DNA of 64,000 nt from assembly GCA_958296105.1 (NCBI GenBank), contig OY282441.1, positions 1,523,800 through 1,587,799 of the forward strand, read 5' to 3'. Under the pieces are notes generated by a model. The model made no database searches, was not told the DNA's origin, and saw only the letters and a program-made list of their open reading frames with translations. Source of the DNA: an uncultured Dehalococcoidia bacterium. Lineage in GTDB: Bacteria; Chloroflexota; Dehalococcoidia; Lucifugimonadales; UBA1123. The translations under genes and the position numbers were made by a program. Of the stretch, positions 10,864 to 15,736 are shown piece after piece; within the stretch, counting starts at the first letter, position 1, and each line of letters opens with the position of its first letter.

Positions 10864-13746
10864 TCAGCGGCTCGAAACGGTTACGCGCTGATCGGCGTCC
10901 ACGTCGGTCAGTACGCTCGTCTCTCCGTTGGCCCACTGGACGCGAACCTCGTCTGCGGTCGTGGCTGCGCCCAGCCCGAAGTGGGCTATTCTGCCCGGCT
11001 CCTGGGTCACGTAGTTGGTCGATGCGTGCAGCTCTCGCATCTGGGTAACACCGTTGGCGGTCACGTACACCCTCGAACCGATGCCGTGTCGATGGAGTGG
11101 CGGCGCGCCTTCCAGCGTCACGGCGAGCCAGTGGTTATCGTTCACGGAGTCGTTGCGAAGCAGCGTGGGCGCGGCGGGGCTGCGGACATGCGCGCCGCCC
11201 TCCACCGCGTACTCGTGGTTGTTGGTGACGAAGATGTCCAGATCGCCGTCGTTGTCGAAGTCGAACAGTATTACGCCTCTGCCCTGCCCTCGGTCGCCTG
11301 CGCCCGCTCGTTCTGCCACGTCCGCGAACGAGCCATCGCCAAGGTTCTCGAACAGTCTGGCGGGCTGGTCGTCGAACTCCTGCGGGTCTCCGTCCTCATG
11401 CCGCTGCACCCAGCCGTTCACGTGGTACAGGTCGAGGTCGCCGTCGTTGTCGAGGTCGCCGAAGCTGGCCGCCCAGCCCCAGCCGCCATCGCGGACGCCC
11501 GCGCCCATGCTCACCTCGTTCAGCGCGCCGCCGCCGTCGTTCCGGTATAGGCGATTGCCAGTGCCGCCGTGGATTCCCCTGTCGGGGTCGTCTCTGCCGA
11601 AGATGCTGGAGACGAACCAGTCCAGATCGCCGTCGCCGTCGTAGTCGCCGATTGCGGACCCCATGCCGTTTTCGTCTGTCAGCGCTTGGGTGGCTTCGTC
11701 AGAGATCTCGAACGTTCCGTCCCCCGTGTTCAGGTAGAGGCGCGACATCCCGTAGTCGGAGACGACCGCGAGGTCGGCGAAGCCGTCATCGTTCATATCT
11801 GCGAATCTAGGCGCGAACACCCACAGATCTATGGCGGGCGAGGCGCGAAATTCGTAGGCTTCCAGATGTCCGAGTCCGTCGTTGGCGTACATGATCAGAG
11901 GAGCGCCGCCGTTCGTCCCGATCAGCGGATTCGCGCTCGGCGAGGGCGACAGGTCGTTGACCGTCTTGGTCGCCTCGTGGTACGCGCGCGCCGTCTCAGG
12001 GTTCCACTCGCCGAGCGCAAGCTCCAGCATCCCATCGTTGTTCACGTCGCCCCAGCTCGGGCTGGTGGCGAACATTTCAGGCTTGCCGATCATGGATTCG
12101 TCGACGGTGAAGCTCCCGCCGCCGTCGTTGATCAGAAGATAGTGGGGCGCGCGCTGAGCGGCGACGACAATATCGACGTCGCCATCGTTGTCGTAGTCGG
12201 CGGCGGCGGCGGCGGCTCCCAGTTTGGTCGGCAGGTCAGCGCCCCTCCTGGCTGCCTCGTCCCTGAACGTTCCGTTCCCCTGATTCATGTACAGCAGGCT
12301 GGGCGCTTCGCCGCCGCGCAGCACGAACAGGTCCACCCATCCGTCTCCGTCGAAATCTTCGGCTGCTGCCCCGCCGATCATGTCCTTCGGCTCGATCTTG
12401 TCCAGCAGGGCTTCGGGCGCGGTGTGCGTGTGTGAGATCCCCGCCTCCAGCGTCACGTCCGTGAAGCGCATTGCGCTCGCTCGGCTGATTTCGACGTCCA
12501 TGCCAAGCGCGCGCGAGTAGGGGGCGTCACGCGCCGCCGTTTCCAGCTGTGGGGTGGTCGCGCCGTAGTTCGCTCGCAGTCCGAAATCGGGGCCGTTTCC
12601 GAGCGCGACGAGCGCGAGCGCGGCTGCGCCGCCCGCTATTCCGAGTGTCCACGTGCTGGCTCCGAGAGCTGCGACCGCCCTCTTGGGCATGACCTTCGCC
12701 AGTCCCCAGAAGGTGATGGGACCTCCGGCGGCGGCGGTGAACAGCAGCGCCGCCGCCGGAGCGGTTCCCATTCCGGACATGAGCAGCACTGCCACGAGCG
12801 GAATCTCGAACAGCAGCGGCACGTTGATGGCGATGCCGATGGTCGCGGCTATGACGATCCCCAGCACGTCGTCGCCGAGCCAGCTAGTTACCGCCTGCGG
12901 GCTGAGCCACTGTATCGCAAGCCCGCTGGCGAACCCTGCCAGAACCATCACGGGCGCAAGACGGATTACGTGGCCCGCCGTTATCCGCGCCCACTCGCGG
13001 AAGCCTTCGCTCAGAGCGTCCGCCCATCCGACATCGTCCGGGGGCGGCTGGCTCGTCTCCAGTGACAGATCGAGTGCGGCTTGGCCCTTTCCCCGCGCGA
13101 CTTTCGCCACCAGCGGGCCGATCAGCAGCGCCCCCACGAGGCTCAGCGCGATGCGCGTTCCGCCAATCAGCGGCACGAACACCATGGCGACCATGATGAG
13201 CGCGGGCAGGTTGAGCGTGGAAGATCCCTGCACTATGGACAGGGTGGTTTCGACTCCCGCGCCGCGCCTTCGGAACGCGGACGCCACAGGAACGATGCAC
13301 GCGGAGCATAGGCTCATGGCGGGGCCGACGACCAGCCCCTTCAGGGAGCCTCTGATTCCGGTGGCGTACAGCCCCCTGCCGCCGGACTGCGGAAACACGA
13401 ACGCCTCGGTCGCGCCCGCTACCAAGAAGGCGAACGTCATTCCCACCGCCACCAGTCTGAGATACGTCAGAGAAAAATCCCACCAGCGGGAGAGGAGCGA
13501 GGATTCGGGCGGCTGCTCTATGCAGAAGCCCTGAAAGCACTCCGCCGCGGGCGAGGTGGCGACGGCGAGATCGGCTCGAACGGTGTCCAGCTTGGGAACG
13601 CGGTTGAACACCAAGAACAGGGTGAGGAGAGCCGCGATCAGGGCAAAGCCGACGAGACGCCGCTTCTTCGGCGCGCTGTCGTATAGGGATTCGGGGAGGC
13701 CCCTGGCCCGCACGTTCAACATGGTGCGCAAGCTGCCCTGCTTCAT
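10864..13746 (-). CDS. Fusion: UPF0718/ArsP-type permease + FG-GAP/VCBS beta-propeller + UnbV/ASPIC domain
   Basis: From the ATG at 13746 the product is 960 aa. Residues about 30-390 are a multi-span membrane domain of the YraQ/ArsP permease type, with the signature CSACIVPVASAF at 147-158 and GTAPAAALLFTAAAGGP near 325. Residues about 415-870 carry at least six FG-GAP blades with Asp-rich calcium loops such as DFDGDGWVD, DYDNDGDVD, DYDGDGDLD and DFDNDGDLD. The C-terminus (about 880-955) is an UnbV/ASPIC domain (GIGSRVYV, WANGE). A GTG at 13788 also opens the frame but lies inside a hairpin. The propeller is expected to be exported; the substrate is unknown. Confidence 0.85.
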   Translation of the reverse strand: MKQGSLRTMLNVRARGLPESLYDSAPKKRRLVGFALIAALLTLFLVFNRVPKLDTVRADLAVATSPAAECFQGFCIEQPPESSLLSRWWDFSLTYLRLVAVGMTFAFLVAGATEAFVFPQSGGRGLYATGIRGSLKGLVVGPAMSLCSACIVPVASAFRRRGAGVETTLSIVQGSSTLNLPALIMVAMVFVPLIGGTRIALSLVGALLIGPLVAKVARGKGQAALDLSLETSQPPPDDVGWADALSEGFREWARITAGHVIRLAPVMVLAGFASGLAIQWLSPQAVTSWLGDDVLGIVIAATIGIAINVPLLFEIPLVAVLLMSGMGTAPAAALLFTAAAGGPITFWGLAKVMPKRAVAALGASTWTLGIAGGAAALALVALGNGPDFGLRANYGATTPQLETAARDAPYSRALGMDVEISRASAMRFTDVTLEAGISHTHTAPEALLDKIEPKDMIGGAAAEDFDGDGWVDLFVLRGGEAPSLLYMNQGNGTFRDEAARRGADLPTKLGAAAAAADYDNDGDVDIVVAAQRAPHYLLINDGGGSFTVDESMIGKPEMFATSPSWGDVNNDGMLELALGEWNPETARAYHEATKTVNDLSPSPSANPLIGTNGGAPLIMYANDGLGHLEAYEFRASPAIDLWVFAPRFADMNDDGFADLAVVSDYGMSRLYLNTGDGTFEISDEATQALTDENGMGSAIGDYDGDGDLDWFVSSIFGRDDPDRGIHGGTGNRLYRNDGGGALNEVSMGAGVRDGGWGWAASFGDLDNDGDLDLYHVNGWVQRHEDGDPQEFDDQPARLFENLGDGSFADVAERAGAGDRGQGRGVILFDFDNDGDLDIFVTNNHEYAVEGGAHVRSPAAPTLLRNDSVNDNHWLAVTLEGAPPLHRHGIGSRVYVTANGVTQMRELHASTNYVTQEPGRIAHFGLGAATTADEVRVQWANGETSVLTDVDADQRVTVSSR

Positions 13747-13760
13747 CTCCGCTAACTGCA

Positions 13761-13796
13761 AGCGGGGTGTGGCGCGATTGCTCGCCACACCCCGCT
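13761..13796 (-). terminator. Strong 14-bp hairpin between two minus-strand genes
   Basis: AGCGGGGTGTGGCG (13761-13774) pairs perfectly with CGCCACACCCCGCT (13783-13796) around an 8-base loop. It lies 27 bases after the stop of the binding-protein gene (13823) and before the permease-fusion gene. There is no U-rich tail on the minus strand, so it is either an imperfect terminator or an mRNA-stabilising stem-loop that lowers downstream expression. Confidence 0.7.
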
Positions 13797-13822: not shown

Positions 13823-15736
13823 CTAGTCCCTGAAGCCGGTCTCTTCGGCTCTCATGTCTCGGTCCATCCAGACATAAGCCCACTTGGAGGCGTAGTCCAC
13901 GAACGCTAGAACTCGCTCGCCGTTGTGGTTCTGCACCCACGGCTGCCAGTAGTCTCCGCCGAAGCCGGCGGGAACCTGTACGTGCGGCGCAAGCTCGAGG
14001 AAGGCGCTCGTTGCGATCTGGATGCGCTCGATCTGCTCCGTCGAGTCGGTCGCCACCAGAACGTCCTCCCACAGCGCGTGCCAGTCGGGATCGTTCAGGT
14101 TCGACCTGTTCCACTGGTGGCCAGCCCTGAAGTCGTTCAGTCCGTTGGGTCTTCCCACCAGCTGGTTGGACATGAAGTCGTACTGCTTCTCGAACAGCCT
14201 GCTCTGGAGAACGGGGCCGTCAACCAGATCCAGCGTGACCTTGACGCCGATGTCGTCCCAGAAGCCGAGCGCTATCTGCGCCGCCTCAAGCTCCAGCTCG
14301 CTGGTATTTCGGATCATCAGGGGGATCTCGAAGCGCTCGCCGTTCTCGTCCAGCGTGAAGCCCTCTTCGTCCAGCAGGGCGGCCGCCTTTACGGGATCGT
14401 ACACGAAGTACTCCTGCACCGATTCCGGCTGCTGATCCAGCGGCTCGTAGTGGAGCGGCCACTCGGGCGTCAGCGGGAACGCGAGGTCTACCGCGTCTCC
14501 TTGGAAGAGGGTATTCGCGAAGACCTCCCTGTCGATCGCCATGTTCATCGCGCGGCGCACGTTCAGCTTGTCGAACGGAGGCTTGTTCATGGGCATCCAG
14601 AATATGTGAGCGCCCTCGATTGGCTTCACCTTGCCGAGGTCGGGGTTCGAGCGCTCTATGGCAGCCTGATCTACGGTTCGCACCGAGCGCAGCTTGTCTA
14701 TCTTGCCCGTGCGCAGCGCCGCCAGCCTGGTGGCTTCCTGCGGAATGATGATCTCGATGACCTTGTCCATGAAGGGGAGCGCGTACTCGCGCTCGCCCAC
14801 CGTGTGGGTGATGTACCAGTCGGGGTTCTTCTCGAACTCGATGGAGCTGGCAGCCACGTATCCGTCTTCCGTGGTCATCCACGGGCCGGTGCCGGACTGG
14901 TTCCATGGCTCGTCCGTGCCAAGCTCTATCGTCTCTGGGGGAGCGGCGATGAAGTAGGGGCCCCATGCGAACTCGTATCCCCAGAAGGATATGGGCTTGT
15001 TGGTGTGGTAGGTGACCGAGTCGTTGACGCCGTCTCCGTCCGTGTCGTCGGCGGTGACGCTGTCCACGAAGTCGTGTCTGGGCCAGCGGCAGTCCTTGAT
15101 GCGCTCGAACTCCGCCGCCAGCTCCTCGACTGTAACAGCCCTGCCGAACGTGGGGTGCTTGTCCTGCCACTTGATGCCCGGCCGCAGGTGGAACTGGTAG
15201 GTCAGCGGATCGGGTATGCTCCAGAAGTCTGCCATTGCGCCGGTGGCGAGCTTGTCCGTGCCGAAGCCGAGAACGGGCAGGTAGGTGGTGTCACCCGATC
15301 CGGATGGTCCCAAGTTGTAGTCTCCGAACAGGAAGTTCTCGACCGAATAGGTCAGCAGATCCTGCGCCTTGAACTCGCACATGTCCCACTTCGAGCCGGG
15401 GTCGCTTGCGCGGGCGAGCCGCAGAGTGCCGCCGTACGTCGGCTTGGTGCGAGTCTCGACCTGCTGCACGTCCTCCGGTCTCAGCTGCACCATGGAGACC
15501 TGCTGAGACTGTACAGGCACCTCCTTGATGACCTCCTTGACCACTTCCTTCTCCACGACGACCGGCACTTCGACTTCTTTGACCACCTCTTTTTCCACCA
15601 CCACCTCTTTGATGACCTCCACCACCTGCGGGGTGGGGGCCGGGGCAACTTCCTGAGCGCCGCAAGCGACTAGGAGCGTCATTATGGCCGCTCCCACCGC
15701 CGCGGCGGGCCAGTGAAGTCTAAAGGTCTTACGCAT
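13823..15736 (-). CDS. Extracellular solute-binding lipoprotein, family 5 (peptide/nickel type)
   Basis: The 637 aa protein begins with a lipoprotein signal: basic residues, a hydrophobic core and lipobox LLVAC with Cys25. Residues about 37-77 form a Val/Glu/Lys-rich tract (VVEVIKEVVVEKEVV and onward). The rest is an SBP_bac_5 domain (TYGGTLRLA near 95; ADFWSIPDPLTYQFHLRPGIKWQD; NVRRAMNMAIDREVF). It would deliver peptides or similar solutes to an ABC importer, but no permease or ATPase genes adjoin it, so it is an orphan. A GGAG site precedes the ATG and a promoter lies about 77 bases upstream. Confidence 0.9.
   Translation of the reverse strand: MRKTFRLHWPAAAVGAAIMTLLVACGAQEVAPAPTPQVVEVIKEVVVEKEVVKEVEVPVVVEKEVVKEVIKEVPVQSQQVSMVQLRPEDVQQVETRTKPTYGGTLRLARASDPGSKWDMCEFKAQDLLTYSVENFLFGDYNLGPSGSGDTTYLPVLGFGTDKLATGAMADFWSIPDPLTYQFHLRPGIKWQDKHPTFGRAVTVEELAAEFERIKDCRWPRHDFVDSVTADDTDGDGVNDSVTYHTNKPISFWGYEFAWGPYFIAAPPETIELGTDEPWNQSGTGPWMTTEDGYVAASSIEFEKNPDWYITHTVGEREYALPFMDKVIEIIIPQEATRLAALRTGKIDKLRSVRTVDQAAIERSNPDLGKVKPIEGAHIFWMPMNKPPFDKLNVRRAMNMAIDREVFANTLFQGDAVDLAFPLTPEWPLHYEPLDQQPESVQEYFVYDPVKAAALLDEEGFTLDENGERFEIPLMIRNTSELELEAAQIALGFWDDIGVKVTLDLVDGPVLQSRLFEKQYDFMSNQLVGRPNGLNDFRAGHQWNRSNLNDPDWHALWEDVLVATDSTEQIERIQIATSAFLELAPHVQVPAGFGGDYWQPWVQNHNGERVLAFVDYASKWAYVWMDRDMRAEETGFRD

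What the first reader, a model, noticed from the sequence alone, without database searches (positions are those of the whole stretch)
10864..13746. Membrane permease fused to a calcium-loop beta-propeller
A UPF0718/ArsP-like transporter domain with its CSxC-type signature is followed in one reading frame by at least six FG-GAP blades and an UnbV/ASPIC domain. The combination suggests a transporter that presents a large binding or adhesion domain outside the cell. I do not know a described protein with this order.
Basis: partly seen in the sequence, partly recalled or inferred. Interest (0 to 1): 0.7.

Follow-up and report, generated by a model that had tools for sequence, protein, structure and literature searches.

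The report
Transporter fused to surface calcium-binding propeller
A marine SAR202-type bacterium has one gene that joins a membrane transporter to a large wheel-shaped, calcium-loop domain predicted to face outward, and the same joined protein occurs in dozens of related genomes, so it is a real but apparently undescribed protein family.

Summary
Minus-strand ORF 13788-10864 (start probably ATG 13722) joins an ArsP_1/UPF0718 permease, a propeller with seven calcium loops and an ASPIC/UnbV domain, without stop or frameshift. It is not an artefact: 64 full-length fused ORFs occur in 80 genome-scan loci, mostly SAR202/Dehalococcoidia, also Spirochaetia and a Deltaproteobacterium. The propeller matches CRTAC1 (Z 39.5, 453 residues). 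Charge pattern and secreted relatives place the propeller outside. Best reading: a thiol-site, possibly elevator-type permease carrying an exchangeable surface-binding module. Substrate, direction and the propeller's ligand are unknown. Known domain families in a conserved new combination.

The parts
10864..13722 (-). gene for the permease-propeller fusion (ORF open up to GTG 13788; most likely start ATG 13722)
12661..13443 (-). ArsP_1 permease domain (residues 116-376)
13603..13656 (-). TM1 (residues 45-62), preceded by KKRR
13522..13539 (-). CFQGFC motif (residues 84-89), predicted outside
13297..13308 (-). CSAC motif (residues 161-164) in first membrane hairpin
12799..12825 (-). NVPLLFEIP (residues 322-330) in second membrane hairpin
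12478..12600 (-). linker (residues 397-437), low model confidence, predicted outside
11149..12471 (-). FG-GAP propeller (about residues 440-880); seven Dx[DN]xDG loops at residues 478, 531, 581, 664, 715, 778, 843
10879..11085 (-). UnbV_ASPIC domain (residues 902-970)
13761..13796 (-). 14-bp-stem hairpin between the SBP gene and the fusion, with equivalents in two orthologues
13823..15736 (-). SBP_bac_5 solute-binding protein gene, directly upstream on the same strand

Best explanation
The gene encodes a membrane transporter with a built-in outer domain. The N-terminal part is an ArsP_1-type permease with an extra N-terminal helix, possibly an elevator-like carrier whose site is formed by two hairpins holding C161/C164 and N322/E328; it moves a small, probably thiol-seeking substrate. 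Fused to its outward-facing C-terminus is a CRTAC1-like seven-bladed propeller plus ASPIC domain that binds a ligand or partner at the cell surface and serves the permease. The permease is the constant part and the outer module is exchangeable. The unit is often encoded beside a dipeptide-type (SBP_bac_5/DppBC) ABC importer and may work with it. Shown: one frame, domains, wide conservation, invariant cysteines, conflict of the two domain trees, recurrent importer neighbourhood. Well supported inference: propeller outside. Weak inference: elevator fold, thiophilic substrate, capture role, cooperation with the importer. Unknown: substrate, direction, ligand.
For: Domains over curated cut-offs. 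64 full-length fused ORFs in 80 genome-scan loci. The ORF's only Cys, C84, C89, C161 and C164, are present in 40/40 aligned relatives, as are N322 and E328. Of the 100 invariant columns in 20 fused proteins, 74 lie in the permease (my count). Positive-inside pattern: residues 30-46, 130-152, 168-180, 267-277 and 362-372 rich in K/R and poor in D/E; 63-104, 293-309 and 397-440 net negative. A split version encodes the propeller in its own gene with a signal anchor, and stand-alone relatives carry lipoprotein-like or anchor signals. CRTAC1 fold match Z 39.5, 453 residues, rmsd 2.5. Permease model: best rows are ArsB, Pho90, NaS1 and NaDC1 carriers, Z 10-11. Tree conflict: AU p 0.0004 and 1.6e-84. 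ABC-importer genes within 1.5 kb in 16/50 dereplicated loci, p 1.6e-7 to 4e-4 against estimated chance rates of 7-13%, in several gene orders, also in a Spirochaete and a Deltaproteobacterium.
Against: The permease fold matches are below the level that is safe for helical proteins (Z 11; no Foldseek match under E 0.001). No substrate-specific family is reached (SaoE 44 of 325 bits, SO_0444 Cu/Zn 21.8 of 300). 34 of 50 dereplicated loci have no importer gene within 1.5 kb, and SAR202 genomes hold many such importers. Stand-alone permeases without propeller exist. The chance rate for the neighbourhood is my estimate from gene density, and related loci are not fully independent. The tree conflict could partly reflect hidden paralogy.
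Confidence: 0.5

Rival explanations
1. The permease part is mainly a membrane anchor, and the protein is an adhesin or lectin for particles, sponge tissue or other cells.
For: FG-GAP/ASPIC propellers are typical of secreted binding proteins; the propeller diverges faster than the permease (mean pairwise identity 37% against 56%); two tandem copies in G008 (L068) keep the external C[FL]QGFC motif and the propeller although the permease core and CSAC are lost.
Against: A CxAC motif is kept in 64 of 64 fused proteins and N322 and E328 in 40 of 40; the permease is the most conserved part; the same permease exists without a propeller.
Confidence: 0.2
2. The protein is a sensor or 'transceptor': the propeller detects an extracellular ligand and gates the permease or signals to the cell.
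For: A conserved channel-like part joined to a variable outer domain, near importer genes.
Against: No cytoplasmic signalling domain and no recurrent regulator gene was seen among the recurring neighbour clusters.
Confidence: 0.15
3. It is an ordinary ArsP-type efflux pump for trivalent organoarsenicals or soft metals, and the propeller is incidental.
For: ArsP_1 domain over cut-off, conserved thiols; ArsP of Campylobacter jejuni extrudes trivalent organoarsenicals (PMC6205960).
Against: No ars gene among the six neighbouring genes checked; far below the equivalog cut-offs of SaoE and SO_0444; propeller retained across distant phyla.
Confidence: 0.12

Closest known systems
ArsP_1 / UPF0718 permeases (PF03773; ArsP, SaoE, SO_0444 Cu/Zn efflux)
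   Same: Pfam domain over cut-off; CSxC motif followed by P; conserved E-I-P motif
   Different: Extra invariant external CFQGFC; large C-terminal outer domain; importer rather than ars context; far below the SaoE and SO_0444 equivalog cut-offs
CRTAC1 / bacterial FG-GAP + ASPIC_UnbV proteins
   Same: Seven-bladed propeller with Dx[DN]xDG loops plus ASPIC domain; fold match Z 39.5 to 9etn
   Different: Tethered to a multi-helix permease instead of being secreted or a lipoprotein
Ion-transporter (elevator) superfamily: ArsB, DASS/INDY, CNT, TRAP-QM
   Same: Two broken-helix hairpins; best structural neighbours, Z 10-11
   Different: Similarity is only suggestive, with no sequence relation found
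Dipeptide-type (SBP_bac_5/DppBC/OppDF) ABC importers
   Same: Recurrent gene neighbours
   Different: Separate proteins; joint function not shown

Membership tests
ArsP_1 (PF03773) | Curated Pfam score | tested here: met
   68.7 bits against 32.3
ArsP_1 (PF03773) | CSxC-type motif and E-I-P motif | tested here: met
   CSAC 161-164 and FEIP 327-330 invariant in 40 relatives; compared by eye with L154 and L155 permeases
ArsP organoarsenical exporter | Efflux of trivalent organoarsenicals | not testable with these tools
   needs an assay
SaoE (NF040736) | Equivalog cut-off | tested here: not met
   44 of 325 bits
SO_0444 Cu/Zn efflux (NF033936) | Equivalog cut-off | tested here: not met
   21.8 of 300 bits
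CRTAC1-type propeller | FG-GAP repeats plus ASPIC_UnbV domain | tested here: met
CRTAC1-type propeller | Fold | tested here: met
   9etn Z 39.5, rmsd 2.5, 453 aligned
CRTAC1-type propeller | Calcium binding | not testable with these tools
   seven Dx[DN]xDG motifs present
Ion-transporter (elevator) superfamily | Fold | tested here: inconclusive
   Z 11.3, rmsd 5.5, 273 aligned to ArsB; no Foldseek match under E 0.001

The most novel reading that the evidence does not exclude
A general surface exchange platform: a constant thiol-site permease carrying swappable outer capture modules (calcium propellers, PD40, DUF3179), acting with a dipeptide-type ABC importer as one two-transporter system, for example importing an organic or metal-thiol complex and exporting the freed part.
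Probability: 0.12. Interest if true: 0.8.

Novelty: new variant of a known kind. Interest (0 to 1): 0.52.

Why it matters
[quoted passage not shown] A conserved protein that joins a binding wheel to a transporter, with exchangeable wheels, is a directly testable handle, and it occurs in the isolate Ca. Lucifugimonas marina. It would add a large outer domain to the ArsP permease family and a transporter-tethered form to the CRTAC1 family.

Tried and rejected
Artefact, stop or frameshift between the domains: rejected by the open frame and many same-frame relatives. GTG 13788 as start: inside a hairpin and not shared, so unlikely. Arsenic-operon context: no ars gene among the six neighbours checked. 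Solved structures by sequence gave no relative of the permease; Foldseek on the permease gave nothing significant. Literature searches for permease + FG-GAP + ASPIC + UnbV, for SAR202 + FG-GAP and for UPF0718 found no paper; a search for SaoE gave nothing useful. An early statement that no invariant column lies in the propeller was dropped: alignment A3 holds stand-alone permeases, which hides such columns; the fused-only alignment A1 shows 26 in the propeller, many of them calcium-loop Asp or Asn. MFS genes abut the fusion in the Lucifugimonas group but look lineage-specific, so no function was drawn from them.

Full report
Observation. The ORF 13788..10864 on the minus strand is one open frame of 974 codons. 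Pfam places ArsP_1 at 116-376, six FG-GAP_3 stretches, and UnbV_ASPIC at 902-970, all over their cut-offs. Orthologues share a start MLNxRA at the equivalent of ATG 13722. The GTG at 13788 lies inside a 14-bp-stem hairpin (13761-13796) with equivalents between the SBP gene and the fusion in two orthologues. There are seven Dx[DN]xDG loops, the integrin-like 'calcium blade' motif (PMC3123361).

How common. The window's genome is a single 3.18 Mb contig with one ArsP_1 gene. Among 98 related genomes, near-full-length relatives at 42-73% identity and many further fusions were found. One scan of a collection of 84,980 species genomes found 93 relatives and kept 80: mostly SAR202/Dehalococcoidia, including the isolate Ca. 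Lucifugimonas marina (L130), plus Spirochaetia or Spirochaetaceae bins (L136, L139, L148) and a Deltaproteobacterium bin (L140). They hold 64 full-length fused ORFs. In a phylum-wide sample of 201 genomes only this family's members had frames near 1000 aa; the other matched permease frames were 122-556 aa. Most of these genomes are metagenome bins, so a few taxon labels may be wrong.

Anatomy. The AlphaFold model (mean pLDDT 79.5, pTM 0.61) has a helical N-terminal part, a poorly modelled linker (406-433) and a propeller. The propeller plus ASPIC region matches murine CRTAC1, Z 39.5 over 453 residues, and by sequence at E 4e-18. The permease modelled alone has two broken-helix hairpins whose turns carry CSAC and NVPLLFEIP. 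Its best solved neighbours are elevator carriers (ArsB 11.3, Pho90 11.2, NaS1 10.6), which is suggestive only. The ORF has only four cysteines, C84/C89 (CFQGFC) and C161/C164 (CSAC), present in 40 of 40 aligned relatives. As a DNA pattern CFQGFC has 29 matches in 22 of 60 related genomes and none for the reversed control, with varied synonymous codons, and nearly always one match per family gene. In the 20 fused proteins of alignment A1, 74 of 100 invariant columns lie in the permease; many of the 26 in the propeller are calcium-loop Asp or Asn (my count).

Topology. K/R-rich, D/E-poor segments alternate with net-negative ones so that 63-104 and 397 onward lie outside. In L081 the propeller is a separate gene that overlaps the permease gene by 11 bases and begins with a basic stretch and a hydrophobic anchor; stand-alone relatives mostly have lipoprotein-like or anchor signals. 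Both point to an outside propeller.

Modularity. Permeases average 56% pairwise identity and propellers 37%. L145 has a propeller of the window's type (starred clade, support 100) but its permease lies elsewhere (AU p 0.0004). A second propeller type forms one starred group while its permeases do not (AU p 1.6e-84). So outer modules were probably exchanged more than once; hidden paralogy is the alternative, and these groups were chosen from the same data. Other outer parts are DUF3179 (L041), PD40+TIG+FG-GAP+ASPIC (L086), a repetitive Gly-rich stretch (L074), or none (L118 and others).

Neighbourhood. Directly upstream of the fusion is an SBP_bac_5 gene, nearest in the PDB to heme-binding protein A and dipeptide-binding proteins. 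Across the family SBP5, DppB, DppC or OppD/F genes flank the fusion in several orders, including DppB-DppC-SBP-fusion, SBP-DppB-DppC-fusion, fusion-SBP-DppB, divergent, and OppDF-permease-propeller. After dereplication 16 of 50 loci have one within 1.5 kb. The chance rate, estimated from 3-42 SBP5 matches per genome, is 7-13%, giving p between 1.6e-7 and 4e-4. This is a functional hint, not proof.

Mechanism. Most likely a transporter with a surface binding module. The permease keeps all candidate site residues and is the most conserved part, which argues against a mere anchor. Conserved thiols suggest a thiophilic substrate or a redox step. ArsP itself extrudes trivalent organoarsenicals (PMC6205960), but none of the six neighbouring genes checked is an ars gene. 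Two G008 copies that lost the permease core but kept the external motif and propeller suggest that the external motif may serve the outer domain; this is unexplained.

Novelty. Both domain families are known. Their fusion, its spread, the CFQGFC tag, the module exchange and the importer context were not found in the open-access papers searched, which do not cover subscription papers or domain-architecture databases. I therefore call it a new variant of a known kind.

Noticed in passing
window 13761-13796: Strong hairpin between the SBP gene and the fusion, with equivalents in L049 and L050 and no clear T-run; perhaps an expression-balancing or processing element.
   Followed up: partly
L068:4446-10972: Two tandem copies keep C[FL]QGFC and the propeller but have lost CSAC and the recognisable permease core.
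   Followed up: partly
L067:3589-15036: Tandem array of two fusions and two stand-alone lipoprotein-like propellers in one genome.
   Followed up: no
L041:6405-8579: The same permease fused to DUF3179, a domain of unknown function.
   Followed up: partly
L086:5983-9771: 1262-aa member with a PD40 propeller and a TIG domain between permease and FG-GAP propeller.
   Followed up: partly
L110:9205-10686 (also L090, L130, L144): In the Lucifugimonas group an MFS transporter gene lies convergent, 1-13 bases from the fusion.
   Followed up: no
L074:5983-8352: Permease followed by a repetitive Gly-rich stretch that may be a beta-helix; no confident family.
   Followed up: no
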